Source: a bacterium | GTDB lineage: Bacteria > Pseudomonadota > Alphaproteobacteria > Sphingomonadales > Sphingomonadaceae | NCBI GenBank assembly: GCA_030824575.1 | Contig: JAVBXL010000035.1 | Location: 1 to 64,000, forward strand | DNA: 64,000 nucleotides | Direction of reading: 5' to 3' | In this document: positions 1 through 11,833 of the stretch, one piece after another | How positions within the stretch are numbered: position 1 is the first letter of the stretch | Layout: each line of letters starts with the position of its first letter | Program-made: the position numbers and the translations under genes | Notes under the pieces: model-generated | The model's database searches: none | Seen by the model: the letters and a program-made list of their open reading frames with translations, nothing else | What the model was told of the DNA's origin: nothing

Positions 1-1904
1 TGCCCCACCTCAACCCCGGCCTGATGGACGCGGCCGACTATGCCCTGCTGCGCCCCCATGCCGCGTCGATGGGCATCATGCTGGAAAGCAGCGCAGATCG
101 GCTGTGCGCGCGTGGCGGCCCGCATTTCGGGTCGCCCGACAAGGAGCCGGTGCGCCGTCTGGCCACGATCGCCGAGGCGGGCCGCGCCAAAGTGCCTTTC
201 ACCACCGGGCTGCTGATCGGCATCGGCGAAACCCGCGACGAACAGGTCGACGCGCTGGTCGCCATCCGCGACCTGCATCGCCAATATGGCCATATTCAGG
301 AAGTCATCATCCAGAATTTCCGGGCCAAGCCGGGCACGCGGATGGCCGATCATGCCGAACCCGCGCTCGACGATCATCTCTGGACGATCGCCGCAGCGCG
401 GCTGATCCTGGGGCCGGAGATGACGATCCAGGCGCCGCCCAACCTGCACGATCAGGTCGATCTCGCCCCACTGATCCGGGCCGGGGTGAACGACTGGGGC
501 GGGGTGTCGCCGGTGACGCCCGACCATGTAAATCCCGAAGCGCCCTGGCCCCATCTGGAGACATTGGCGCAGGCCACCCGCGCCGCTGGCCGCACGCTTT
601 CCCAACGCCTTGCCATCGGGCCACGTTACGCGCTGGCGGCGCAGGATTGGGCCGCGCCTGCGGTCGCGACCCTTATCCTGCGCGCGATCGACGGACGCGG
701 CCTGCCCAAACCCGACGACTGGGCCGCCGGACATGGCGACGTCGCACCCGCGCTGATCGGCGGCGATGTAGGCCAGGCATCGGTGCAGGCGCTCCTGCGC
801 CACGCCGAAGCGGGCGGGCGCCTGAGCGAACGCGCCATTGTAACCCTGTTCGATGCGGAGGGGCCTGACCTTGCCGCCATCATCGCGCAGGCCGACCGGC
901 TGCGGCAGGAGACCATCGGCGACACGCTGACCTATGCCGTCAACCGCAACATCAACTACACCAATATCTGCCTCTACAAATGCGGCTTCTGCGCCTTTTC
1001 GAAGGGCAGTACGAAGGCGATGCGCGGCCCGGCCTACCGGCTCGACTATGCCGAAGTCGGACGGCGCGCGGCGGAAGCCTGGGATCGCGGCGCAACCGAA
1101 GTCTGCCTGCAAGGCGGCATCCATCCCGACTATGATGGCAACACCTATCTGGCGGTGCTGAAGGCCGTGCGCGACGCCGCGCCGGACATCCATATCCACG
1201 CCTTCTCCCCGCTGGAAGTGACCCATGGTGCCCAGACGCTGGGCCTGCCGCTGGAGGATTATCTGGCGCAGTTGAAAGCGGCGGGCCTCTCCACCTTGCC
1301 CGGTACAGCAGCCGAGATACTCGACCCCGAAATCCGCGCGCTCATCTGCCCGGACAAGGTCAGCGCCGACGAGTGGATCGAGGTGATGCGCGTCGCCCAT
1401 GGTATCGGCCTGCGCAGCACCGCGACGATCATGTTCGGCCATGTCGAGGGGTATCGCCACTGGGCGCGCCACCTGCTGCGCATCCGCGCCTTGCAGGAAC
1501 AGACCGGCGGCTTCACCGAATTCGTCCCCTTGCCCTTCGTCCATATGGAAGCGCCGATCTGGCGGAAGGGGCTGGCGCGCTCCGGCCCAAGCTATCGTGA
1601 GGCGGTGCTGATGCACGCGATCGCCCGCATCGTCCTGCACCCGCTGATCCCCAATATCCAGGTGTCCTGGGTCAAGATGGGGCCGGAGGGGGCGGCGGCA
1701 ATCCTGAACGCGGGCGCCAACGACATGGGCGGCACCCTGATGGACGAATCGATCACCCGCGCGGCGGGTGGCGTCAACGGCCAGGAATTTGGCCCCACGC
1801 AAATGCGCGCGCTCGCCGCATCGGTCGGCCGCCCGGCGCGCCAGCGCACCACCCTTTATGATCCGGTATCGCCCCGGCAAACCCACATCACGGAGTCCCT
1901 ATGA
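1..1904 (+). CDS. fbiC: FO synthase (CofG/CofH fusion), 5' truncated by window edge
   Basis: Makes 7,8-didemethyl-8-hydroxy-5-deazariboflavin (FO), the deazaflavin chromophore of coenzyme F420, in the cytoplasm. The frame is already open at base 3 and reads PHLNPGLM, matching the inside of the CofG half. About 634 residues are visible of roughly 850 usual for FbiC, so the first radical-SAM cysteine motif lies outside the window. The second radical-SAM domain (CofH half) is complete: NICLYKCGFCAFSKG carries the CxxxCxxC cluster, with Cys codons at 969, 981 and 990. The C-terminal GANDMGGTLMDESI block is typical of CofH. The stop overlaps the next gene's start (ATGA), so the two are probably translated together. 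Identification is firm. Whether the N-terminal half is intact cannot be seen. Confidence 0.93.
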   Translation, partial: PHLNPGLMDAADYALLRPHAASMGIMLESSADRLCARGGPHFGSPDKEPVRRLATIAEAGRAKVPFTTGLLIGIGETRDEQVDALVAIRDLHRQYGHIQEVIIQNFRAKPGTRMADHAEPALDDHLWTIAAARLILGPEMTIQAPPNLHDQVDLAPLIRAGVNDWGGVSPVTPDHVNPEAPWPHLETLAQATRAAGRTLSQRLAIGPRYALAAQDWAAPAVATLILRAIDGRGLPKPDDWAAGHGDVAPALIGGDVGQASVQALLRHAEAGGRLSERAIVTLFDAEGPDLAAIIAQADRLRQETIGDTLTYAVNRNINYTNICLYKCGFCAFSKGSTKAMRGPAYRLDYAEVGRRAAEAWDRGATEVCLQGGIHPDYDGNTYLAVLKAVRDAAPDIHIHAFSPLEVTHGAQTLGLPLEDYLAQLKAAGLSTLPGTAAEILDPEIRALICPDKVSADEWIEVMRVAHGIGLRSTATIMFGHVEGYRHWARHLLRIRALQEQTGGFTEFVPLPFVHMEAPIWRKGLARSGPSYREAVLMHAIARIVLHPLIPNIQVSWVKMGPEGAAAILNAGANDMGGTLMDESITRAAGGVNGQEFGPTQMRALAASVGRPARQRTTLYDPVSPRQTHITESL

Positions 1905-2731
1905 CCGATCTCTTGCACCCCCTGAAGGACAAGGTGGCGATCATCACCGGCGGCGGCAGCGGCATCGGCCGCGCCACCGCGCTGATGATGGCGCGGCGCG
2001 GCGCGAAGGTCGCGATCACCGGTCGCACCGAAGCGCGGCTCGCGCATGTCGTTGAAGAAATCGTGGCGCAGGGCGGGCAGGCGCTCGCCGTCGCCATGGA
2101 CGTGATGGAGGAAGCCTCGATCGCGGCAGGGATAACCAAGGTGGTCGATCATTTCGGCGGCCTCCATATCCTCCACAGCAACGCCGCCCAGACCGGCCTG
2201 ATGCATGAAGACGCGCTGATCGCCGACATGGACGTCGCCTTCTGGGATCGCACCTTCGCCACCAACCTGCGCGGGTCGATGCTGTGCGCCAAACACGCCA
2301 TCCCGCATCTGCTGTCGGCAGGCGGCGGGTCGATCGTCTTTACAGGTTCCGGCAAGGGGCTGGCGGGCGATGTCGACTATCCTGCCTATGGCACGACCAA
2401 GGCGGGGATGCTGGGCCTCTCCAAATATATCGCCACCCAATATGGCAAACAGGGCATCCGATCCAATGTCGTCGTGGTCGGGCTGGTGATGACCGAGGCG
2501 CTGGACGACAATATGCCGCCAGAGGCCCAGAAGCTGATGACCGAACATAATCTGGTCGATTATCTGGGCCGGCCAGAGGACATCGCCGAAGTCGTCGCCT
2601 TCCTGGCGTCCGACCAAGCGCGCTATGTCACCGGCGCATCGATCGTCGCCGATGGCGGCTTCACTTCCCATTCGGCGGTCTATGCGGACATGATGCGCTT
2701 TGCCGCGATGCAGACGGAGACACAGGCATGA
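1901..2731 (+). CDS. SDR-family NAD(P)-dependent oxidoreductase
   Basis: Classical short-chain dehydrogenase/reductase of 276 residues. The Rossmann motif TGGGSGIG is at about residues 16-23, and the catalytic YxxxK appears as YGTTK near residue 163, preceded by the FTGSGKG serine strand. The C-terminal VTGASIVADGG block is typical. The start overlaps the fbiC stop by four bases, and the stop overlaps the next gene (F420 reductase) in the same way, placing this enzyme in a tightly coupled F420 operon. The substrate cannot be read from sequence. Context suggests an alcohol/ketone step in the pathway served by the F420 enzymes, which is inference. Confidence 0.88.
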   Translation: MTDLLHPLKDKVAIITGGGSGIGRATALMMARRGAKVAITGRTEARLAHVVEEIVAQGGQALAVAMDVMEEASIAAGITKVVDHFGGLHILHSNAAQTGLMHEDALIADMDVAFWDRTFATNLRGSMLCAKHAIPHLLSAGGGSIVFTGSGKGLAGDVDYPAYGTTKAGMLGLSKYIATQYGKQGIRSNVVVVGLVMTEALDDNMPPEAQKLMTEHNLVDYLGRPEDIAEVVAFLASDQARYVTGASIVADGGFTSHSAVYADMMRFAAMQTETQA

Positions 2732-3384
2732 GCCTTCCCGCTATCGCCATCGTCGGCGGCACCGGCAATCTGGGCGCGGCGATCGCCTGGCGCCTCGCCC
2801 GTGCGGGCTATCCCGTGGTCATCGGATCGCGCAGCGCGGACGGCGCGCAACACGCGGCGGCAGAGCTTGGCCACGGCCTTTCGGGCGCGACCAATATCGA
2901 CGCAGTGGCGGGTGCCGACATCGTCATCGTCACCGTGCCCTTCGCGGCGCAGGACGCGACGCTGCGCGACATCGCGCCCCATGTTGTGGGCAAGATCGTC
3001 GTGGACACCACCGTCCCGCTGGTCCCGCCCAAGGTGATGCGCGTGCAACTCCCCGCCGAAGGATCCGCCGCGCTCCGCGCCCAGGCCGCGCTGGGCGAGG
3101 GTGTGACTGTCGTGTCCGCCTTCCACAATGTCGCCGCGCACAAGCTGGCCAAGGATGTCGATGTCGGCTGCGACGTGCTTGTCTTCGGCGATGACAAGGC
3201 GGCGCGCGGCCAAGTGGTCGCCCTTGCCGACGCGATGGGCCTGCGCGGCCTGCACGGCGGCGCACTGTGCAATTCCGCCGCCGCCGAAGCCCTGACCTCG
3301 ATCCTCATCTTCCTCAACAAGACCTACAAGGTCGATGGCGCGGGCATCCGCATCACCGGCGACCTGATCCCGCCGACCGATTGA
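2728..3384 (+). CDS. npdG: NADPH-dependent F420 reductase (Fno/NpdG-type)
   Basis: 218 residues with an N-terminal nucleotide-binding GGTGNLG motif (residues 10-16), the IGSRS segment expected to contact the NADPH 2'-phosphate, and the VDTTVPL and SAFHNV blocks of F420:NADP+ oxidoreductases. It would shuttle hydride between NADPH and F420, supplying F420H2 to the LLM enzymes that follow. It is coupled by ATGA overlap to the preceding SDR and lies two genes after fbiC, so cofactor synthesis and cofactor reduction are co-expressed. The length is normal for the family. An alternative reading as a generic NADP-binding F420-like reductase is possible, but the fbiC neighbour favours the specific call. 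Confidence 0.88.
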   Translation: MSLPAIAIVGGTGNLGAAIAWRLARAGYPVVIGSRSADGAQHAAAELGHGLSGATNIDAVAGADIVIVTVPFAAQDATLRDIAPHVVGKIVVDTTVPLVPPKVMRVQLPAEGSAALRAQAALGEGVTVVSAFHNVAAHKLAKDVDVGCDVLVFGDDKAARGQVVALADAMGLRGLHGGALCNSAAAEALTSILIFLNKTYKVDGAGIRITGDLIPPTD

Positions 3385-3468
3385 GCGCAACCCCTTCCGG
3401 GCGGAAGGTGCGACCGGTCCACCGGGCGCGCCATCCTGCCGGGCATAAACGATACAGGGGATAGAGGA

Positions 3469-4389
3469 ATGAAGCTCAACATCGGCGTGCCCAATTCGAT
3501 GCATGTGGCGGCGATGACCCAGCCATGGGAACATGCGCTTACCGGCGACGATATCGGCCGCGCGCTCAAGGTCGCCGACGATCTGGGCTTCAACAAATGC
3601 ATGTTGGGTGAACATTTCATCATCCCGCAGGAACATGTCGCGCTATCGGGCGACCATTATGTCCATGGCACGGTGGCGCTCGCCTTCCTCGCAGGGCGCA
3701 CGTCAAGGATGCGCGTCAGCTCGTCCGTCTCCATCCTGCCGCTGCAAAGCCCGATCGTGCAGGCCAAGGCCTGGTCCACGCTCGACTGGCTGAGCGGCGG
3801 CCGCGCGACCGCGCTGTTCGGCGTCGGCTGGCTGAAGGAGGAATTCGACATGCTGGGCGTCGATTTCCACAATCGCGGGCGGATGGCGGACGAATATGTG
3901 GCCGCGATCATCGAACTATGGACGTCCGACACCCCCACGTTCGAGGGCGAATTCGTCTCCTTCAAGAATGTCGGCTTCGCGCCCAAGCCGGTGCAGCAGC
4001 CGCGCCTGCCGATCTGGTTCGGGGGCGACGCGGAACCGGTATTGAAGCGCGTCGCGAAATTCGGCGACGGCTGGTCGCCCTTCCGCACCCCGCCGGAAAA
4101 ATTCCCAGCATGTCTCGACCTCATCCGCGCCCAGCCATCCTATGACGGTCGCCCGATCGACCTGTTCTTCGCGCTGGAAATGCTCAATGTCGGCGCCCAT
4201 CACGAAATTATGGACGATCCCCGCGCGCCCGGCACGCGCAATGCGCAAAAGATCATCGACCAGATCGGCTGGCTGAAGGATCTGGGCGTCAACGAAACTA
4301 TCGTGCCGCTGCCACCGGGCATGACGGGCCTCACCGAATATATCGAGCGCCTGCACTGGGTAGCCGAAGAGATCATGCCCAAAGTGTGA
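3469..4389 (+). CDS. LLM-class F420-dependent oxidoreductase
   Basis: 306-residue luciferase-like monooxygenase fold protein. The N-terminal strand MKLNIGVPNS, the ADDLGFNKCMLGEH helix-strand unit, the GVGWLKEEFDMLG segment and the LPIWFGGDAEP block match TIM-barrel flavin/F420 oxidoreductases of the family. The start is preceded by a purine-rich GGGGATAGAGGA. It follows npdG by 84 bases and is probably in the same transcript. In such enzymes F420H2 or F420 exchanges hydride with an organic substrate. The substrate here is unknown. FMN use rather than F420 cannot be excluded from sequence, but fbiC and npdG next door support F420. Confidence 0.87.
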   Translation: MKLNIGVPNSMHVAAMTQPWEHALTGDDIGRALKVADDLGFNKCMLGEHFIIPQEHVALSGDHYVHGTVALAFLAGRTSRMRVSSSVSILPLQSPIVQAKAWSTLDWLSGGRATALFGVGWLKEEFDMLGVDFHNRGRMADEYVAAIIELWTSDTPTFEGEFVSFKNVGFAPKPVQQPRLPIWFGGDAEPVLKRVAKFGDGWSPFRTPPEKFPACLDLIRAQPSYDGRPIDLFFALEMLNVGAHHEIMDDPRAPGTRNAQKIIDQIGWLKDLGVNETIVPLPPGMTGLTEYIERLHWVAEEIMPKV

Positions 4390-4424
4390 GCATTGCCCAC
4401 CTGCATAGTGAATCGGAGTAGATC

Positions 4425-6092
4425 ATGACCCAATATGATGTGGTCGTCGTCGGATCGGGCGCGGCGGGCCTGACGGCGGCGCTGCGGGCCGCGGCTGCGG
4501 GCCTGTCGGTGCTGGTGCTGGAAAAGGCCGCGCATTTCGGCGGCACCACCGCCATATCGGGCGGGGGCATCTGGGTGCCGGGCAGCCCGCAGGCGCAGGC
4601 CGCCGGGGTCGATGACAGCGCAGCCATCGCCCGCCAATATGTCCTCGACGTCATCGGGCCAAGCGCCGACCCGGCGCTGATCGACGCCTATCTGGATGCG
4701 GCACCAGCCATGGTCGCCTGGCTGGAACGCCACAGCGCGGCCCGCTTCCTCCTCTCGCCGCCGAGCAGTGACTGGTATCCCGACATTGCCGGGGCCGCCG
4801 ACCATGGCCGCCTGCTCTCGCCCCAGGAATATGACGGCAAGAAGCTGGGCGCGCATTTCAACGACCTGCGCCCCGCCCGCGAAGAGTTTAACGCACCCGG
4901 CGGCTTCATGATCGACCTGTTCGATCTGCCCTATCTGGCGGAGATGCCATCGGCAAAATCCCTGTTCCATTTCGGCAAGCTTGCCGCGAAATTCGGCGCG
5001 GACAAGCTGCGCCGCTACCCGCGTGGCACCCGGCTGACGATGGGCAACGCCCTCGTCGCCCGGCTGCTGAGGTCCGCGCTCGACGCGGGCATAACCCTGC
5101 GCAAGGACGCGGCGGTCGATCGCCTGCTGGTCGCCGACGGCCGCGTGACCGGCGTGCGCGTGGGTGGAGAGGATATCGCGGCCAAGGTCGGCGTGCTGCT
5201 GGCGGCGGGCGGCTTTTCCGCCAGCGAGCAATTGCGCAAGGCCTATATTCCGTTCGCGGAAGATCATGTGTCGATCCTCCCCTATGAAAATACCGGCGAT
5301 GGCATGAATATGGGGCTGGAGGCTGGCGCGTCGCTGGATGGCGACAACCTCGTCAACGCGGTCTGGGCGGTCGTATCCACCATGACCCGGCCCGACGGCT
5401 ATGTCGCCCGCTACGCCCATCTGATCGACATGTCGAAACCCGGCTGCATCGCCGTCAACGCGAAGGGCGAGCGGTTCGGCAACGAGGCGTCGGTCCATTT
5501 CGTCGAGGCGATGCACGCCACCGGCACCGTCCCCGCCCACATCATCGGCGACGCCCATTGCGTCAAAACCTATGGCATGGGCATGGTGCTGCCCGGCGGC
5601 GGCGGGCTGAAAAAGCTGATCGCGGCCGGCTATGTGATCGAGGCACCCACCCTGCGCGCACTGGCCGACAAGATCGGCGTCGATGGCGAAGGCCTGCTCG
5701 CAACCGTGGCCAAGATGAATCGCTATGCCGAAACCGGCAAAGACCCCGATTTCGGCAAGGGCGACACCCAGATCGACATCGAAATCGGCGATCCCAAGCA
5801 TAAGCCCAATCCGTGCCTGGGCCGCGTCGAAAAGGCGCCCTTCTACGCGATCAAGATCCACCCCGGCGATGGATCGACCACGGTGGGGCTGAAGATCGAC
5901 GCGCATTGCCGGGTGATTGGCACCGATGGCGCGCCGGTCGCGGGCCTCTATGCCGCAGGGCTGGATGCGAACTCGATCTGGCGCGGCAAGTCGCCCGCCC
6001 ATGGCTGCAATGTCGGTCCGGCGATGGTGACGGGCTATATTGCGGGTCAGGCGATGGGAGCCATGGGAGCGGGGGCGCTGGTTCCCGCCTGA
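4425..6092 (+). CDS. FAD-dependent dehydrogenase, 3-ketosteroid delta1-dehydrogenase-like
   Basis: 555-residue flavoprotein. The FAD dinucleotide motif GSGAAG is at about residues 9-14, followed by LEKAAHFGGTTAISGGG, the pattern of the fumarate reductase / KstD / 3-oxosteroid dehydrogenase superfamily. The C-terminal AGLYAAGLDANSIW and KSPAHGCNVGPAMVTGYIAG segments complete the FAD site. These enzymes introduce a C=C bond next to a carbonyl or reduce an enoyl bond. Steroid specificity is not proven, and the surrounding Rieske, LLM and SDR genes fit degradation of a cyclic lipid-like or xenobiotic compound. A Shine-Dalgarno-like GGAG precedes the ATG. Its stop lies in a palindrome shared with the convergent LLM gene. 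Confidence 0.85.
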   Translation: MTQYDVVVVGSGAAGLTAALRAAAAGLSVLVLEKAAHFGGTTAISGGGIWVPGSPQAQAAGVDDSAAIARQYVLDVIGPSADPALIDAYLDAAPAMVAWLERHSAARFLLSPPSSDWYPDIAGAADHGRLLSPQEYDGKKLGAHFNDLRPAREEFNAPGGFMIDLFDLPYLAEMPSAKSLFHFGKLAAKFGADKLRRYPRGTRLTMGNALVARLLRSALDAGITLRKDAAVDRLLVADGRVTGVRVGGEDIAAKVGVLLAAGGFSASEQLRKAYIPFAEDHVSILPYENTGDGMNMGLEAGASLDGDNLVNAVWAVVSTMTRPDGYVARYAHLIDMSKPGCIAVNAKGERFGNEASVHFVEAMHATGTVPAHIIGDAHCVKTYGMGMVLPGGGGLKKLIAAGYVIEAPTLRALADKIGVDGEGLLATVAKMNRYAETGKDPDFGKGDTQIDIEIGDPKHKPNPCLGRVEKAPFYAIKIHPGDGSTTVGLKIDAHCRVIGTDGAPVAGLYAAGLDANSIWRGKSPAHGCNVGPAMVTGYIAGQAMGAMGAGALVPA

Positions 6093-6105
6093 CCGGTCAG
6101 GCGGG
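6084..6105. terminator. 22-bp perfect palindrome across two convergent stops
   Basis: A perfect 11+11 inverted repeat (CCCGCCTGACC and its complement). It contains the last codons and TGA stop of the flavoprotein on the + strand and, by symmetry, of the LLM oxidoreductase on the - strand. Probably a bidirectional hairpin terminator or transcript-end stabiliser. There is no U-tract, so termination strength is uncertain. Confidence 0.55.
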
Positions 6106-7170
6106 TTCGGTGACCCCGGCCCGCGCCTTTGCGGTCGCCACCAGCCGGTACAGACCGGCATTATAGTCGGTCATCTGCTCCATCGTCAGGTCGCGATAGG
6201 GCGTCATCGGACAGAGCGAATCCACCACGTCCCAGAAGGGCTCGATCTTCTCCAGCACCTCGTCCACCGGGCCGCAGGTCACGAACGCCTCGACCATATC
6301 GTCCGACACATTGCCGATCACCTTGGCGATGTCGCCATGTTCGCCCAGGCTCAGTTGGCAGGCCCGCGCCTGGTCGCCAAAGCCGATCGCCTCGAAAAAC
6401 GGCTCATATTCCTTATAGCCCGAATAGGCGGCGACGGTCGCGCGGCTGTCGTCGATCGCCTTTTGCTTGTCGTCGTTCACAGCGATCCACGGCCAGGCGT
6501 TAATCTCTATGTCGCTGCGCGCGCGCCCATATTTCGCCAGCGTCGCTTCGATGAAGGGCAGCTTGCTGCGCGTATAGGCCGCTGACCACAACGCATGAAC
6601 CATCAGCCCGTCGCCGACTTCCAGCGCCAACGCGGTCATCTTGTCCTGCAACGCAGCGATCCAGATCGGGATTTCCGCACGCACCGGGGGCGCCGTCAGC
6701 ATCATCTCGCCAAAATCGGCGGAGAAATATTCCCCCTCGATCGGGTCGAGGCCGATATGCGCGTTGGCGATGACATAGCGAATCACCTTCACGCTTTCGC
6801 GCAAATGGGTCAGCAATTTGCGCTCCGGCTCACCATACATGCCGGTGACGCAACTCTTGATGCTGGACCCCAGCCCCAGCACGAAGCGCCCGCCCGAAAT
6901 CCGGTCCACGTCCATCGCCGCGTAGGCGGTTTCCACCGGGCTGCGGGTGCCCGCGATGGCAACGCCGGTCCCGACCTTCAGGCTGCTGGTCAGCGCGGCC
7001 GTGGCGGCCATCGGCACAAAGGGCGGGCCATAGATCTGGAGCGAAAAACAGCCCTCGAAGCCGACCTGCTCCATCTGCTGGCCGATCCCGCCCATCATGG
7101 GGGCTGGCAGGGTCGGCATGACCCCCCACCAGCGGCGTTCGCCGCCGACGGCGTTGACGAGCTTTGGCAT
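6097..7170 (-). CDS. LLM-class F420-dependent oxidoreductase
   Basis: 357 residues from the chosen ATG at 7170, with the protein beginning MPKLVNAVGG. Family signatures are GFEGCFSLQIYG near the N terminus, VGTGVAIAGTRSP, the GGRFVLGLGSS phosphate-binding region, and IPIWIAALQDKMTALA. It belongs to the same luciferase-like superfamily as the enzyme at 3469-4389 but is a different subfamily by sequence. An in-frame ATG at 7200 would add ten residues. I reject it because it lies inside a hairpin plus T-tract that ends the upstream oxygenase operon. The gene lies on the - strand downstream of the Rieske pair, so it may be expressed by readthrough or from its own promoter. Substrate unknown. Confidence 0.85.
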   Translation of the reverse strand: MPKLVNAVGGERRWWGVMPTLPAPMMGGIGQQMEQVGFEGCFSLQIYGPPFVPMAATAALTSSLKVGTGVAIAGTRSPVETAYAAMDVDRISGGRFVLGLGSSIKSCVTGMYGEPERKLLTHLRESVKVIRYVIANAHIGLDPIEGEYFSADFGEMMLTAPPVRAEIPIWIAALQDKMTALALEVGDGLMVHALWSAAYTRSKLPFIEATLAKYGRARSDIEINAWPWIAVNDDKQKAIDDSRATVAAYSGYKEYEPFFEAIGFGDQARACQLSLGEHGDIAKVIGNVSDDMVEAFVTCGPVDEVLEKIEPFWDVVDSLCPMTPYRDLTMEQMTDYNAGLYRLVATAKARAGVTEPA

Positions 7171-7181
7171 GAAGCATCCCG

Positions 7182-7212
7182 AAAAAACCGGGCGGACCAT
7201 ATGGGTCCGCCC
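7182..7212 (-). terminator. Rho-independent terminator after the Rieske pair
   Basis: Read on the - strand: stem GGGCGGAC (7212-7205), seven-base loop, stem GTCCGCCC (7197-7190), two bases, then six T residues (7187-7182). It lies 19 bases after the stop of the Rieske-less oxygenase gene. It also decides the start of the following LLM gene, because an upstream in-frame ATG falls in the hairpin loop. Confidence 0.75.
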
Positions 7213-7230: not shown

Positions 7231-8304
7231 TCAGAACTGGAACAGTTCCTTGCGCAGGCCGATGATGTCGCTGCAATCGGCGCTCACATTGTCGCGATAG
7301 GCAAAATCGCCCTTCGCCTGACGATCGGCCAATTCCATCATCGCCATGCGATAGCGCTGCCCGGCCTGGTCGAACTTGCTGTGCAAATCCTTACGGTCGG
7401 TATGGCGCATGTAACGGGGGCTTTGCGGGGAGGTCATATAGCTGTCCTGCCGCGACACCTTATAGCCGGCCTTTGGCATGACATAGCTGAACATGCGCCC
7501 GGCATTACTGGTGTTCATCACCATCTCCATCCGCGTGCGATCGCGCGTTTCAGGGGTGCAGGGGTGGAACAGCGGCACGTCGTCGCCGGGGCTGAACCGG
7601 CCATAGGCGATCGCGCAATGCGACCGCAGATAGATGCGGATCACCTGCCGCACATTCTGGGTCGGCTGCTTGATGCCGCTGAAAAATTTCATCACCGGTG
7701 CAACCGACTTGTTGACGCAGGTGCGGACCATGGTGACAGTCTCACTGTCATAATAGGTCTCGATCGTCTCGCTGTCCGACCGCTCGTCGCCCACCACGTC
7801 GGCATGCAGAAAATCGGCATGGGTCAGGTCGATGAGGTTCTCCAGGCTGATCGGCGCGGAGCTTTCGAAACGTACCGTCGCCGTCATGTGCCGGGGCAGG
7901 CCACCCTTGGGCGGCAGGAAGGGCAGGCTGGGCAAATGGCGCGGATCGGCAGCCAGCGGATTGCCCAGCCAGATCCAGACCACGCCATAATGTTCCATCA
8001 CCGGATAGCGGCCACGCGCGTCGGTATAGTCGCTCTTGTCACGCACCACGCGCTCATTGGGGTGGAACTCGCTCGCCACGACCACGCCATTGTCGCGCCA
8101 CAGGAAGATAGGGTTGGAATAGACGGCGCGGCGCACCGGCTTGCCCGTCACCGAATAATCATGGGCGACCGGGAACCAGCTGTCGCGCATCACGATATTG
8201 TGCGGAACCCAGCGGTTGACGACATTCATGGCGATCGGGCTGCCACCGGCTGGCGGCGCGCTGTTGTCGTCATGGGATGTGGGGCGATCGGCTATGTCTA
8301 ACAT
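7231..8304 (-). CDS. Rieske-type oxygenase alpha-like subunit lacking the Rieske domain
   Basis: 357 residues, ATG at 8304 preceded by a strong GAAGGAGG. The sequence follows vanillate O-demethylase-type oxygenases: AHDYSVTGKP, IFLWRD and YPVMEHYGVVWIWLGNP, then the mononuclear iron motif NLIDLTHADFLH (residues 156-167: Asn156, Asp159, His162, His167). The [2Fe-2S] Rieske motif CxH...CxxH expected between IFLWRD and YPVMEHYG is absent. Only about 30 residues join the two flanks and they contain no Cys. The frame is uninterrupted, so this is not a frameshift artefact. The immediate upstream neighbour supplies exactly the missing cluster. Inference: the two polypeptides form one oxygenase in which electrons pass from the partner's Rieske centre to this subunit's iron. 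Substrate unknown. Confidence 0.82.
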   Translation of the reverse strand: MLDIADRPTSHDDNSAPPAGGSPIAMNVVNRWVPHNIVMRDSWFPVAHDYSVTGKPVRRAVYSNPIFLWRDNGVVVASEFHPNERVVRDKSDYTDARGRYPVMEHYGVVWIWLGNPLAADPRHLPSLPFLPPKGGLPRHMTATVRFESSAPISLENLIDLTHADFLHADVVGDERSDSETIETYYDSETVTMVRTCVNKSVAPVMKFFSGIKQPTQNVRQVIRIYLRSHCAIAYGRFSPGDDVPLFHPCTPETRDRTRMEMVMNTSNAGRMFSYVMPKAGYKVSRQDSYMTSPQSPRYMRHTDRKDLHSKFDQAGQRYRMAMMELADRQAKGDFAYRDNVSADCSDIIGLRKELFQF

Positions 8305-8318
8305 GGTCAAATCCTCCT

Positions 8319-9257
8319 TCAGGCCGCTACGGTCTGGTCGTGGGTGTCCTGCGGCGCGTCGAGCAGGGCGTTGCGCAAATCCTCGCCATGCAGCGATACG
8401 GTTGGCTTGGTGGTCCGCAGCTTCGATCCGTCGATGGACGACAGGACGGTCAGCGGATTGACCCCGCGCAGCATCGCGCCACGCAACCCCGGCCGACGCA
8501 CGCCCAGTTCCGCGCGCCAGCGCACGGCGGTCACGCCGCGCGCTGCTGGAACGGGGGACAGGACGGCATGGAGTAGGTCGTTGAAGGCGTCGTCGCGCAG
8601 CGTCAGATGCGTCTCGCCGGTCAGCGGATGGGTGCGGGTCTGCAGCGTCAGCGGAAATTCTGCGACGAAATGCGACGGCCAGTGCAGCGGATGCCATTGG
8701 CAACTGCGCTCCATCACCAGCATCCCGCCCTCTTCATGTAGTTCGGACATGATATAGGGGCTGAAACGAACGCCCCGGATCGCCAGGATCAGCGCGGGGT
8801 CGTCATAGAGCGCATCCAGATATTCCTGGTGACTGCAACTGACGTTGACCGTGCCGATATAGCTATATTTGGGTTCCGCGCTCAGCGGCGCTTCCGCCTT
8901 GGGGTTCAGGCAGACGCGCACGAAACCCGCCTGCTCGCTCACGCCAAAGGCGTTGGCCTTGTAAAGCGGCGGAAATTTCTGCTGATCCTTCATGTTGGGG
9001 ATCTCTTTCAGCCGCCCCGTCTCACCATCATAGCTCCAGCCATGATAGCCACACTGGATCAATCCATTATCGCGGATACAGCCCAGCGACAGCGGCGCGC
9101 GGCGGTGGGGACAGCGGTCCTCCAGCGCGCGGGCAATGCCCTGATGGTCGCGCCACAGCACCACCGGCTGGTCGCCAATGTCCACCGACAGCGGCTTTTT
9201 GGACGTGACTTCCTCAGACCGGGCGACGGCCCACCAAAGATCGGTATCGAGACTCAT
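8319..9257 (-). CDS. Rieske [2Fe-2S] subunit lacking the oxygenase iron site
   Basis: 312 residues, ATG at 9257 preceded by GCAGGAGTAAGGAT. The Rieske motif is intact: RCPHRRAPLSLG and CGYHGWSYDG give Cys49, His51, Cys69 and His72, in the fold of aromatic ring-hydroxylating oxygenase alpha subunits. The second half aligns only loosely with an oxygenase catalytic domain, and I find no NxxDxxHxxxxH motif, so the mononuclear iron site appears lost. It ends 14 bases before the partner gene at 7231-8304, whose Shine-Dalgarno overlaps this region, so the two are an operon. It may act as the electron-delivery subunit of a split oxygenase. An alternative is a dead paralogue, though the conserved ligands argue for function. 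Confidence 0.82.
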   Translation of the reverse strand: MSLDTDLWWAVARSEEVTSKKPLSVDIGDQPVVLWRDHQGIARALEDRCPHRRAPLSLGCIRDNGLIQCGYHGWSYDGETGRLKEIPNMKDQQKFPPLYKANAFGVSEQAGFVRVCLNPKAEAPLSAEPKYSYIGTVNVSCSHQEYLDALYDDPALILAIRGVRFSPYIMSELHEEGGMLVMERSCQWHPLHWPSHFVAEFPLTLQTRTHPLTGETHLTLRDDAFNDLLHAVLSPVPAARGVTAVRWRAELGVRRPGLRGAMLRGVNPLTVLSSIDGSKLRTTKPTVSLHGEDLRNALLDAPQDTHDQTVAA

Positions 9258-9285
9258 AGCGGTTATCCTTACTCCTGCGATTAAA

Positions 9286-9311
9286 TTGACGTATGACAAT
9301 TTATATGTCAA
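9286..9311. promoter_or_regulatory. Candidate TetR operator between the Rieske operon and tetR
   Basis: AT-rich inverted repeat in the 66-bp divergent intergenic space: arms TTGACGTA (9286-9293) and TATGTCAA (9304-9311), one mismatch, ten-base spacer. A nested TGACA/TGTCA pair (9294-9298, 9306-9310) shares the right arm. Its position between the divergent regulator and target genes is typical for autoregulated TetR proteins. Confidence 0.55.
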
Positions 9312-9323
9312 CGTCTTTTCACT

Positions 9324-9989
9324 ATGGATCAGCAGATGCTCGATCGACCCCAGCGCGCCCGTGGCCGCCCCGCCCTCAATGCCGTCCAGGCCTTGGATGA
9401 GGACCAGTTGCTTGGGCTTGCCTTCGCGACCTTCGCCGAACGCGGCTATGAAGGGACGACGCTGCGCGACCTGTCCAAGCGGCTGGGCGTCAGCCATAAT
9501 CTGCTCAACGTCCGCTTCGGGCGGAAGGAGGATTTGTGGGTCCGCGCAGTCGATTGGCGCATGGCGCAGGCATCGCCCTTCGTCGAAGCCGCGTTCGACG
9601 AACCAGCCGATGCCGAAGTCCGCCTGCGCCACCTGATCCAGCGCTTCTGCCTCTGGGCGACCCGTAATGGCGACATCGTCTCGCTCACCAATGTCGAAGG
9701 ATGCCGCTCGACCTGGCGGCTCGACCATATCGTCGAACATTTCGTGCTGCCGTTCCAGCGGCGACTGGACGATCTGCTGGACGCGGTGCGGCGGCGGCGG
9801 CCGGTGCATGACCTGTCGACCCCGGCGCTGATGGCGCTGCTGGTACAGGGGGTGGGCTTCTACTTCTCCGCCGTGCCGATGCAACAGCGGCTGGGTGCAG
9901 GGGGCGAAGTCGATGACGCCCATGCCGCCGCGCAGGCCGATCGTCTCGCCGGCTTCCTGCTCGCCGCGCTGCTGCCGCCGACTGGATGA
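9324..9989 (+). CDS. TetR/AcrR-family transcriptional regulator
   Basis: 221 residues. The N-terminal TetR helix-turn-helix is GTTLRDLSKRLGVSHNLL, followed by NVRFGRKEDLW (about residues 44-75). The C-terminal ligand domain is not recognisable at the family level. It is divergent from the Rieske pair and separated from it by the palindrome at 9286-9311, so it most likely represses that operon and itself until a substrate or CoA intermediate binds. That is inferred from position. The basic RARGRPALNA segment just before the HTH core is common in the family. Confidence 0.88.
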   Translation: MDQQMLDRPQRARGRPALNAVQALDEDQLLGLAFATFAERGYEGTTLRDLSKRLGVSHNLLNVRFGRKEDLWVRAVDWRMAQASPFVEAAFDEPADAEVRLRHLIQRFCLWATRNGDIVSLTNVEGCRSTWRLDHIVEHFVLPFQRRLDDLLDAVRRRRPVHDLSTPALMALLVQGVGFYFSAVPMQQRLGAGGEVDDAHAAAQADRLAGFLLAALLPPTG

Positions 9990-10001: not shown

Positions 10002-10319
10002 TCAATCTTCGGGTGCGATGGTGACGGTCATGCCCGACAGGGCCTGCGTCAACATGATTTGGCACGACAGGCGCGAAAGGTCGTTGCGATGCGACGATCC
10101 GTCGAGCAGGTCGCTTTCATCTTCCGTGACCGGCGGCAGGCTCGCGGCGACCGCGGGGTCGACATAGACATGGCAGGTCGCGCAGGAACAGCAACCGCCA
10201 CATAGCGCCAGCAATTCGTCGAATCCGGCATCGCGTATGGCTTCCATCACCGAAATGTCGGCGGGCGCATCGATCGTCTTGCTGGTGCCGTCGCGGGTGA
10301 TGACGTTCAGTTCGGGCAT
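10002..10319 (-). CDS. Adrenodoxin-type [2Fe-2S] ferredoxin
   Basis: 105 residues. The cluster-binding pattern C-x5-C-x2-C is seen in [16 protein letters not shown], with the fourth ligand in RLSCQI, matching vertebrate-type/putidaredoxin-like ferredoxins. The length is normal. It lies just outside the Rieske operon, convergent with tetR, and could donate electrons to the split Rieske oxygenase or to a cytochrome P450 elsewhere. No ferredoxin reductase is visible in this window, so electron entry must come from another locus. Confidence 0.92.
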
Positions 10320-10409: not shown

Positions 10410-11699
10410 CTATTTCACTTCGACCGCGACTGGAAACCGATCGAAATAGAAGCCGAAGAGCCGCCGCAATTCTTCGGCGGTGACATGGAAATCACGCTCC
10501 AGGTCATAGACGATCTTGCCCTTCGTCTGCTCACCATGCTCGGCCAGATAGACATGCAGGTCGGCCAGCGCCTCGTCGGTCAGGGGAATGTCGGCGATGC
10601 GGTAGATTTCCTTCAGGATCGGATCGGGATTTTTGATCCAGTCATGGAAATAGACGTCGATCGTCTGATCGGGCGGCAATATGTCGCGGTCCCGCACGCA
10701 GGCGCGCAGCAGCTTTTCATAGCGATCGGGCCAATAGCCCAGCGGCTCCTGTATATCGACCGACTTGCGAAACATCCGCGCTGCGTAAGTATACATCGTC
10801 AGTTGCGACCGGATCGACCCCACCGGATCGCGATGGGTGATGACGAAAGTGGCGTCGGGGAAAATCTTATATAGCGCGGGCAATTGCTCCATATGCTGCG
10901 GACATTTGATGACCCAGCGATTGGGGCCGTTCAGGAATGTCAGCACCTGCAAAGCCTTCTTCAGATAGGCATAGGTGCCCGACTGGTCGTGGCTCAGATA
11001 ATAGTCGCGCCAGCGCGGCACCATTGCCAGCCATTCGATCAGGTAGGAGGAGAAATTGGGCGCCTGCAACTCGATATCCTCGCTGATATGGTCGGGCGAA
11101 AATTCATGCATGATCGCCATGTGCGGCAGGATAGACTCCATCATCCGCCACCCCTGTTCCGCCTTGGTCCAGCGGGGATTGGCGTCGTCGCTCGTCGGCA
11201 CCTCGTCGGGCGCAGGCACCGGCGCGATCGCCTCCCACCAGGGCAGCGACCGGAAACGGCGATCGGCCGACAACAGCCCCAGCAGGTGCGTCGTGCCCGA
11301 TCGCGGCAGGCCAGCGACGATGATCGGCCGTTCGATCGGGATGTCCACTATCTCCGGGTGGCGCCTGACGATATCCTCGATCCGCAGGCGCGTCGCGGCA
11401 TAGCGGATCATCATCTGGAACAGGTTGGCGCGGGTGACGGCGGACGCATTGGCATCCTCGTCGATCGCCTGGCACCACACCGCCAACCGTTCGCGAAAAT
11501 CCGCCGCGCCGAAATCCGACAGGCCAGTCTGCGCCTGCGCCGCGCCCAATATGAAAGCGGGCTGGAAGACGATCTGGTCCGCCGCCGCTTCGGCCCCGGC
11601 CATCACCTGTTTCTGAACCTCGGTCAGCACCGGATGATGCAGATCGGTGATATCGATGATGTTCCGGCGTGCGGCCACCTCTTGCGCGGGACTGCCCAT
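10410..11699 (-). CDS. Sulfotransferase-family protein
   Basis: 429 residues from the ATG at 11699, which has AACAGGAGAGC upstream. An ATG 27 bases earlier lacks a ribosome site. The PAPS 5'-phosphosulfate loop is seen as GLPRSGTTHLLGLL, and the 3'-phosphate region as FVITHRDPVGSIRS. Bacterial proteins of this type sit in steroid, terpene and xenobiotic clusters of actinobacteria and sphingomonads. Their true reaction is often unproven, and some act on substrates other than sulfonate acceptors. Here it lies beside the ferredoxin and an AraC regulator in the F420 island. Family call is firm, role is open. Confidence 0.85.
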   Translation of the reverse strand: MGSPAQEVAARRNIIDITDLHHPVLTEVQKQVMAGAEAAADQIVFQPAFILGAAQAQTGLSDFGAADFRERLAVWCQAIDEDANASAVTRANLFQMMIRYAATRLRIEDIVRRHPEIVDIPIERPIIVAGLPRSGTTHLLGLLSADRRFRSLPWWEAIAPVPAPDEVPTSDDANPRWTKAEQGWRMMESILPHMAIMHEFSPDHISEDIELQAPNFSSYLIEWLAMVPRWRDYYLSHDQSGTYAYLKKALQVLTFLNGPNRWVIKCPQHMEQLPALYKIFPDATFVITHRDPVGSIRSQLTMYTYAARMFRKSVDIQEPLGYWPDRYEKLLRACVRDRDILPPDQTIDVYFHDWIKNPDPILKEIYRIADIPLTDEALADLHVYLAEHGEQTKGKIVYDLERDFHVTAEELRRLFGFYFDRFPVAVEVK

Positions 11700-11833
11700 G
11701 TCGCTCTCCTGTTTTTGATGGCGCATCTAATCGCGCCGACCCTGTCGTCGGCAAGGTGCGGGGCCATCGCCGCTGCGCCAATTGCTACGCCATCGCGCCA
11801 AAGGGTCGGGCCAGGCTCAAGCGGAGAGGATGG

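What the first reader, a model, noticed from the sequence alone, without database searches (positions are those of the whole stretch)
7231..9257. Complementary split Rieske oxygenase: one subunit keeps the Rieske centre, the other the catalytic iron
Seen: two adjacent genes, 14 bases apart, both resemble oxygenase alpha subunits. The first product has CxH/CxxH ligands (Cys49, His51, Cys69, His72) but no NxxDxxHxxxxH. The second has NLIDLTHADFLH but no Rieske Cys/His, with the cluster loop cleanly removed and the frame intact. Known: in ordinary trimeric enzymes electrons cross from the Rieske centre of one subunit to the iron of its neighbour, and NdmC of the caffeine pathway lacks a Rieske domain that NdmD supplies. 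Inferred: this pair is a two-gene oxygenase with the metal sites divided between unlike subunits, possibly alternating in one ring.
Basis: partly seen in the sequence, partly recalled or inferred. Interest (0 to 1): 0.82.

Follow-up and report, generated by a model that had tools for sequence, protein, structure and literature searches.

The report
Rieske oxygenase split across two subunits
Two neighbouring bacterial genes look like two halves of one oxygen-using enzyme, one keeping the electron-delivering iron-sulphur centre and the other the reactive iron, and related bacteria keep the same division of labour.

Summary
R (9257-8319, 312 aa) has an intact Rieske motif and no two-histidine iron motif. 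F (8304-7231, 357 aa) has NLIDLTHADFLH, an invariant Asp287 and no Rieske motif. The split is conserved: 30 of 34 loci fetched with F carry the tandem pair with the same complementary motifs, as does a Massilia plasmid; the other four are one-gene oxygenases. Among 396 sampled Sphingomonadales genomes, F and R's C-terminal domain occur in the same 8. F is about 31 residues shorter than one-gene relatives before its iron motif. R is predicted as a complete two-domain alpha subunit, like dicamba monooxygenase (Z 22.0), so its catalytic domain looks like a shell. Constraint is complementary: strongest on R's Rieske half and F's iron half. Most likely R and F form one heteromeric oxygenase with electron transfer across the R-F interface; binding, assembly and activity are untested. 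Precedents exist: Micromonas chlorophyllide a oxygenase is found in two polypeptides, and NdmCDE carries the Rieske domain on the reductase. New variant of a known kind.

The parts
8319..9257 (-). R: Rieske-bearing alpha-like subunit, 312 aa
   Evidence: Pfam PF00355 E=3.5e-25; AlphaFold2 model pLDDT 84.5, pTM 0.83; dicamba monooxygenase 3gke_A Z 22.0, rmsd 3.9, 282 aligned, model 1-303
9042..9113 (-). Rieske ligand region C49-x-H51 ... C69-xx-H72 of R
   Evidence: the four ligands are invariant in 24 of 24 aligned R rows
7231..8304 (-). F: iron-bearing alpha-like subunit, 357 aa, without the cluster region
   Evidence: Pfam PF19112 VanA_C E=5.7e-32, no Rieske family; 24-row alignment
7804..7839 (-). 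two-His iron motif N156-LIDLTH-ADFL-H167 of F
   Evidence: present in 30 of 30 loci and in Massilia; N156, D159, H162, H167 invariant in 24 of 24
7444..7446 (-). Asp287 of F, probable third iron ligand (QD motif)
   Evidence: invariant in 24 of 24 aligned rows; role assigned by analogy with other Rieske oxygenases (recalled)
8305..8318 (-). 14-base gap with ribosome-binding-site-like AGGAGG between R and F
10002..10319 (-). [2Fe-2S] ferredoxin (Fer2), candidate electron donor
   Evidence: PF00111 E=5.5e-8; found in 24 of 30 pair loci within the held flanks
6097..7200 (-). LLM-class (luciferase-like) oxidoreductase directly downstream of F
   Evidence: PF00296 E=7.5e-50; best NCBIfam matches are F420-dependent LLM families but below their cut-offs; found in 25 of 30 loci
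9324..9989 (+). TetR-type regulator, divergent from R
   Evidence: homologue annotated TetR/AcrR on pSA2; found in 23 of 30 loci
10410..11726 (-). Sulfotransferase-family protein
   Evidence: PF13469 E=1.3e-37; found in 23 of 30 loci
4425..6092 (+). FAD-binding dehydrogenase of the 3-ketosteroid-dehydrogenase type
   Evidence: PF00890 E=4.6e-83; NCBIfam best hits below their cut-offs; found in 22 of 30 loci
3469..4389 (+). F420-dependent LLM oxidoreductase (TIGR03619)
   Evidence: 192.6 bits, over the cut-off 166.9; found in 12 of 30 loci
2728..3384 (+). NADPH-dependent F420 reductase (npdG)
   Evidence: TIGR01915 181.1 bits, over the cut-off 149.8; found in 9 of 30 loci

Best explanation
R and F are the two unlike alpha-type subunits of one Rieske oxygenase. 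Both descend from complete alpha subunits: R kept the Rieske [2Fe-2S] centre and lost the iron site, F kept the mononuclear iron site and lost the cluster region. A ferredoxin, probably the one encoded upstream beyond the divergent TetR gene, reduces R's cluster; the electron then crosses the R-F interface from a cluster histidine of R through F's Asp159 to F's iron, where O2 is activated. In ordinary homotrimers this step already runs between subunits, so reciprocal loss after duplication leaves one usable interface per R-F pair. Shown here: motifs, conservation, co-occurrence, predicted fold of R, complementary constraint. Inferred: complex formation, metal binding, electron path, ferredoxin partner, and that the substrate is a hydrophobic catabolic compound.
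For: Complementary motifs in 30 of 30 tandem pairs and in Massilia putida. The same 8 of 396 sampled Sphingomonadales genomes hold F and R's C-terminal domain, nine copies each, side by side. R is predicted as a full two-domain alpha subunit; in the helix where I place the lost iron motif (143-152, by order in the fold) no row has a His pair. F keeps the first strands of the Rieske domain by profile alignment but lacks the cluster region; the window's F has no Cys before residue 196, and the few single Cys of relatives do not form a Rieske motif. dN/dS is lower in R's Rieske half than in its C-terminal half in 9 of 10 comparisons, and lower in F's C-terminal half than in its N-terminal half in 9 of 9 computable. 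The genes lie 10-33 bases apart in 29 loci, overlap by 8 in one and by 4 in Massilia. Review text: cluster and iron about 12 A apart between subunits, 45 A within one (PMC12445004 section 6).
Against: No direct evidence of binding, metal content or activity. The fused read-through model had pTM 0.70, low confidence around F's iron helix (476-505), and no coordinates were available, so the interface was not measured. Characterised Rieske oxygenases are consistently C3-symmetric according to the review, and it is unclear how a 1:1 pair fits that. R's C-terminal half shows no significant sequence similarity to F. The ferredoxin was not found within the held flanks in 6 of 30 loci. R keeps D152, D153 and E183 (31 of 31 rows) and H143 and H192 (28 of 31), so a different metal site in R is not excluded.
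Confidence: 0.77

Rival explanations
1. R is a ferredoxin-like electron carrier that meets F only transiently (or serves several oxygenases), rather than a stable subunit; F is a stand-alone iron oxygenase, similar in logic to NdmC fed by the extra Rieske cluster of NdmD.
For: R's Rieske half is under the stronger constraint in 9 of 10 comparisons and its C-terminal half is the less conserved part; NdmCDE shows that the Rieske domain can sit on another component (PMC4408171 passages).
Against: R retains a whole alpha-subunit fold with some 190 further residues under purifying selection (dN/dS 0.06-0.25), which a mere carrier would not need; at the thresholds used R's C-terminal domain was not found without F in 396 genomes.
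Confidence: 0.13
2. F takes electrons directly from the ferredoxin or from a neighbouring flavin/F420 enzyme, and R is an accessory or regulatory pseudo-subunit.
For: Ferredoxin and LLM oxidoreductase homologues lie near the pair in 24 and 25 of 30 loci.
Against: R's four cluster ligands are invariant in 24 of 24 rows and its Rieske half has dN/dS 0.03-0.14, which fits a working cluster; F keeps D159 in 24 of 24, the position of the bridging Asp in ordinary enzymes (role recalled).
Confidence: 0.06
3. Local decay or assembly error: one alpha subunit broken in two, or two decaying paralogues.
Against: Complementary pair in 30 loci across several sphingomonad genera and in Burkholderiales; low dN/dS. 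A simple break would leave R without a catalytic domain and F without Rieske-domain strands; neither is the case.
Confidence: 0.01

Closest known systems
Micromonas pusilla chlorophyllide a oxygenase (CAO) in two polypeptides
   Same: One Rieske oxygenase found in two polypeptide chains (PMC9615114 figure legend). From recall of Kunugi et al. 2013 (not held), one gene has the Rieske motif and the other the iron motif, and both are needed for chlorophyll b synthesis.
   Different: Eukaryotic alga, chlorophyll substrate; here bacterial, in gene clusters that look catabolic, closest in predicted fold to dicamba monooxygenase. Sequence kinship with CAO was not compared.
NdmCDE methylxanthine N7-demethylase
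   Same: NdmC, like F, is a non-heme iron monooxygenase without a Rieske cluster (PMC4408171 passages).
   Different: There the Rieske domain is fused to the reductase NdmD and a GST-like NdmE is required; here it sits on an alpha-like subunit with its own empty catalytic domain.
NdmA/NdmB alpha3 alpha-prime3 demethylases
   Same: Listed as alpha3 alpha-prime3, i.e. two unlike alpha subunits (PMC12445004 table).
   Different: [quoted passage not shown] R and F each lack one site.
Dicamba monooxygenase DdmC and relatives (GdmA, SxtT, GxtA)
   Same: Nearest solved sequences for both R and F and nearest solved folds for R.
   Different: Listed in the review as alpha3 enzymes; ordinary alpha subunits carry both sites.

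Membership tests
Rieske non-heme iron oxygenase alpha subunit | Rieske CxH...CxxH ligands in the N-terminal domain | tested here: met
   R: met, invariant in 24 of 24. F: not met in 30 of 30.
Rieske non-heme iron oxygenase alpha subunit | 2-His-1-carboxylate iron site in the C-terminal domain | tested here: met
   F: met, two-His motif in 30 of 30, D287 in 24 of 24. R: two-His motif not met.
Rieske non-heme iron oxygenase alpha subunit | Both metal sites in one polypeptide | tested here: not met
   Not in R or F of 30 of 30 pairs; each is alpha-like, not a classical alpha subunit.
Rieske non-heme iron oxygenase alpha subunit | Two-domain alpha-subunit fold | tested here: met
   R: Z 22.0, rmsd 3.9 to 3gke_A over 282 residues, model 1-303. 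F: catalytic half by Pfam VanA_C, first strands by hhalign; F was not folded or searched alone.
NdmCDE-type split oxygenase | Rieske domain fused to the reductase | tested here: not met
   R holds a Rieske domain plus an alpha-type C-terminal fold; no FMN or NAD domain matched.
NdmCDE-type split oxygenase | GST-like third component | tested here: inconclusive
   None among the annotated neighbours on pSA2 or the Massilia plasmid; a distant or unannotated gene is not excluded.
Two-polypeptide chlorophyllide a oxygenase | Rieske and iron sites on two separate polypeptides | tested here: met
Two-polypeptide chlorophyllide a oxygenase | Sequence kinship with CAO and chlorophyllide substrate | not tested
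   CAO sequences were not fetched; activity cannot be tested here.
Heteromeric Rieske oxygenase complex | Stable R-F complex with the cluster near the iron | not testable with these tools
   Only a fused single-chain model could be made, pTM 0.70, without coordinates.

The most novel reading that the evidence does not exclude
A bacterial Rieske oxygenase family in which the active site shared between neighbours in an ancestral homotrimer became obligately heteromeric through reciprocal loss in two paralogues, and which no longer assembles as a C3 trimer but as an open R-F dimer or an even-membered alternating ring, with exactly one electron path per catalytic iron.
Probability: 0.3. Interest if true: 0.8.

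Novelty: new variant of a known kind. Interest (0 to 1): 0.63.

Why it matters
In ordinary Rieske oxygenases every alpha subunit holds both centres, so donor and acceptor cannot be altered separately without mixing mutants. Here nature has apparently put the two centres on different polypeptides that can be expressed, mutated, metal-loaded and mixed apart, which would make the electron step between subunits and its gating directly testable. It also looks like reciprocal degeneration after duplication making a complex obligatory. And annotation hides the pairing: in the plasmid records seen the two genes are named separately, 'Rieske (2Fe-2S) protein' or 'Rieske 2Fe-2S domain-containing protein' and 'oxygenase' or 'aromatic ring-hydroxylating dioxygenase subunit alpha'.

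Tried and rejected
Decay or assembly error: rejected by conservation in 30 loci and dN/dS. Simple gene break into two domains: rejected, because R keeps an empty catalytic domain and F keeps Rieske-domain strands. NdmCDE membership: rejected, R is not a reductase. Iron motif in R of L023 and L027: loose pattern matches at residues 133-134, off the expected place. Trees of the Rieske and catalytic domains of six pairs with 25 one-gene relatives: the six F rows form one clade (100/100); the six R rows needed two changes (one change in 0% of bootstrap trees), a very long-branched own-genome row (L003) falling among them, a place the tool flags as unsure. Whether R and F stem from the same one-gene ancestor is unresolved. 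Assignment of the pathway from papers gave nothing that names this pair; of those papers I saw listings only. No paper describing this bacterial pair turned up in the searches; the library lacks most subscription journals. Passages seen in PMC7911964 and PMC7794896 did not describe the algal split. The structure lists were filled by the R part of the fused model. Limits of the dN/dS test: synonymous differences were high (pS 0.26-0.77), the pairs are not independent, and the split at residue 118 was set by hand. The genome-contig scan uses six short peptide patterns and 80 stretches matched, so distant relatives can be missed.

Full report
What is there. Both genes are on the minus strand. R runs 9257 to 8319 (312 aa) and F 8304 to 7231 (357 aa); an AGGAGG-like site sits in the 14-base gap. 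Pfam gives R a Rieske domain (PF00355, E 3.5e-25) and F a VanA_C domain (PF19112, E 5.7e-32); at E<=1 F has no Rieske hit and R no oxygenase catalytic-domain hit. The best NCBIfam match of both is 4beta-methylsterol monooxygenase SdmA, R by its N-terminal part and F by its middle, both far below the cut-off of 600 bits (61.3 and 25.6). In the Protein Data Bank the nearest sequences are dicamba monooxygenase and saxitoxin oxygenases for both, and the guaiacol demethylase 7qwt for F. In the same genome the two other VanA_C matches lie in open frames that also carry a Rieske match, so F is the exception there.

Relatives. A pattern scan of contigs from one genome for each of 84,980 species with F returned 34 loci. 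In 30 of them (L011-L040) an R homologue lies directly upstream; the other four (L041-L044) encode one-gene oxygenases with both motifs. L011 and L012 are near-copies of the window (99-100% identity of F). All 30 R have CxH...CxxH; all 30 F have NL[IL]DLTHADFLH and none has the cysteine-histidine motif. The 30 come from records labelled Sphingobium, Novosphingobium, Sphingomonas, Sphingorhabdus, unclassified sphingomonad bins, single bins labelled Altererythrobacter, Hirschia and Paraburkholderia, and Trinickia fusca (39% and 49% identity). L037 (the bin labelled Paraburkholderia) has a frameshift in F. A further pair lies on a Massilia putida plasmid, with F at 42% identity; its R was not reached by the tblastn search with R's C-terminal half and was recognised from the annotation and its motif. 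Three other plasmid records hold both genes side by side. In 396 sampled Sphingomonadales genomes (own included), F at E<=1e-40 and R's C-terminal domain at E<=1e-5 are found in the same 8, nine neighbouring copies each; one R match, in G298, has a TGA within the matched stretch. In 398 genomes sampled from the phylum only the own genome holds R's C-terminal domain at E<=0.001; with F, 20 of 299 give some match at E<=1e-12, but the score falls from 712 bits (own) to 63 bits.

Anatomy. Invariant in 24 of 24 R rows: C49, H51, C69, H72. Invariant in 24 of 24 F rows: N156, D159, H162, H167 and D287; D287 is the likely carboxylate ligand and D159 the likely bridge to the cluster histidine, by analogy with other Rieske oxygenases (recalled). 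F's residues 39-78 align with R's 1-44 at 35% identity (probability 67%, E 5e-5): the first strands of the Rieske domain remain. From the N-terminal Trp motif to the iron motif F has 113 residues in 29 of 30 loci and 111 in one; one-gene relatives have 143-145 in the 18 of 25 that could be measured. About 31 residues, the part that should hold the cluster, are gone. The window's F has no Cys before residue 196; relatives have at most three scattered Cys before the iron motif, most often one 8 residues ahead of it. R's AlphaFold2 model (pLDDT 84.5, pTM 0.83) matches dicamba monooxygenase 3gke_A along 1-303 with Z 22.0, rmsd 3.9 A, 282 aligned. The helix at 143-152, where I place the lost iron motif by its order in the fold, runs into ALYDDP; it has one widely kept His143 (28 of 31 rows) but no His pair. 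So R looks like a whole alpha subunit with an empty catalytic domain, although invariant D152, D153 and E183 leave a different metal site possible.

Selection. Between pairs of loci (10 comparisons among 14 loci, Nei-Gojobori), dN/dS was 0.03-0.14 for R's Rieske half, 0.06-0.25 for R's C-terminal half, 0.05-0.17 for F's N-terminal half (one not computable) and 0.03-0.07 for F's C-terminal half. R's Rieske half was the lower one in 9 of 10 (the exception is L013-L014, 0.077 against 0.059), F's iron half in 9 of 9. Each protein is held tightest where it keeps a metal, and the emptied domains are still under purifying selection, as structural parts would be. Synonymous differences are high, so the values are rough.

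Surroundings. Within the held flanks (6 kb or less), homologues (>=45% identity) of the ferredoxin occur in 24 of 30 loci, the downstream LLM oxidoreductase in 25, the TetR regulator in 23, the sulfotransferase in 23, the FAD dehydrogenase in 22 (lower bounds, as flanks end). On Novosphingobium resinovorum plasmid pSA2 the same block is followed by cofC, npdG and cofH, with TonB receptors and a P450 in the stretch. This looks like a catabolic island using coenzyme F420 for a hydrophobic, perhaps alicyclic, compound (inference); the substrate is not identified. The ferredoxin is the natural candidate donor, as in three-component monooxygenases (inference). The Massilia pair has a different neighbourhood.

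Mechanism. In known enzymes the cluster of one subunit sits about 12 A from the iron of the next, against 45 A within a subunit (PMC12445004, section 6 read). Dividing the two centres between unlike subunits therefore need not change the active site: R can supply the cluster and F the iron. A three-membered ring cannot alternate. The possibilities are an open R-F dimer, an even ring, or a mixed trimer with one productive interface; F's missing region suggests that interfaces in which F would be the donor are weakened (inference). A fused single-chain model gave pTM 0.70 and no usable interface measure, so this is open.

Prior art. [quoted passage not shown] 2013, which is not held; from recall that paper shows Rieske and iron motifs on separate genes and a need for both. 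PMC4408171 (passages read) describes NdmC without a Rieske cluster and NdmD carrying the extra one. The principle is thus known. What appears new, within the searches, is a bacterial family with reciprocal loss in two alpha-type subunits.

Noticed in passing
window 24-6092 and L064: A block with cofGH (its start seems to lie before the window), an NADPH-dependent F420 reductase and F420-type LLM oxidoreductases, i.e. F420 use in a sphingomonad island; plasmid-borne in Novosphingobium resinovorum (pSA2, with cofC).
   Followed up: partly
L024 and L038; G211: Sphingobium fontiphilum holds two copies of the R-F pair on two contigs; their F proteins are 91% and 78% identical to the window's. The unnamed same-genus genome G211 also has two copies.
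   Followed up: no
L037: A contig binned as Paraburkholderia carries a sphingomonad-like pair with a frameshift in F; its neighbourhood matches that of N. resinovorum L039, so the bin label may be wrong.
   Followed up: no
L063 11227-13238: The Massilia plasmid pair lies near an ordinary ring-hydroxylating dioxygenase alpha/beta pair and a DUF1329-YCF48-MMPL block.
   Followed up: no
window 8319-9923, strand -: R's reading frame stays open far upstream of its start (ORF 8319-9923 minus, 534 aa), overlapping the divergent TetR gene; alignment with relatives supports the start at 9257.
   Followed up: partly
R (window 8319-9257), residues H143, D152, D153, E183, H192: Strongly kept acidic and His residues in R's otherwise emptied catalytic domain (31 of 31 for D152, D153, E183; 28 of 31 for H143 and H192); structural or another metal site is unknown.
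   Followed up: no
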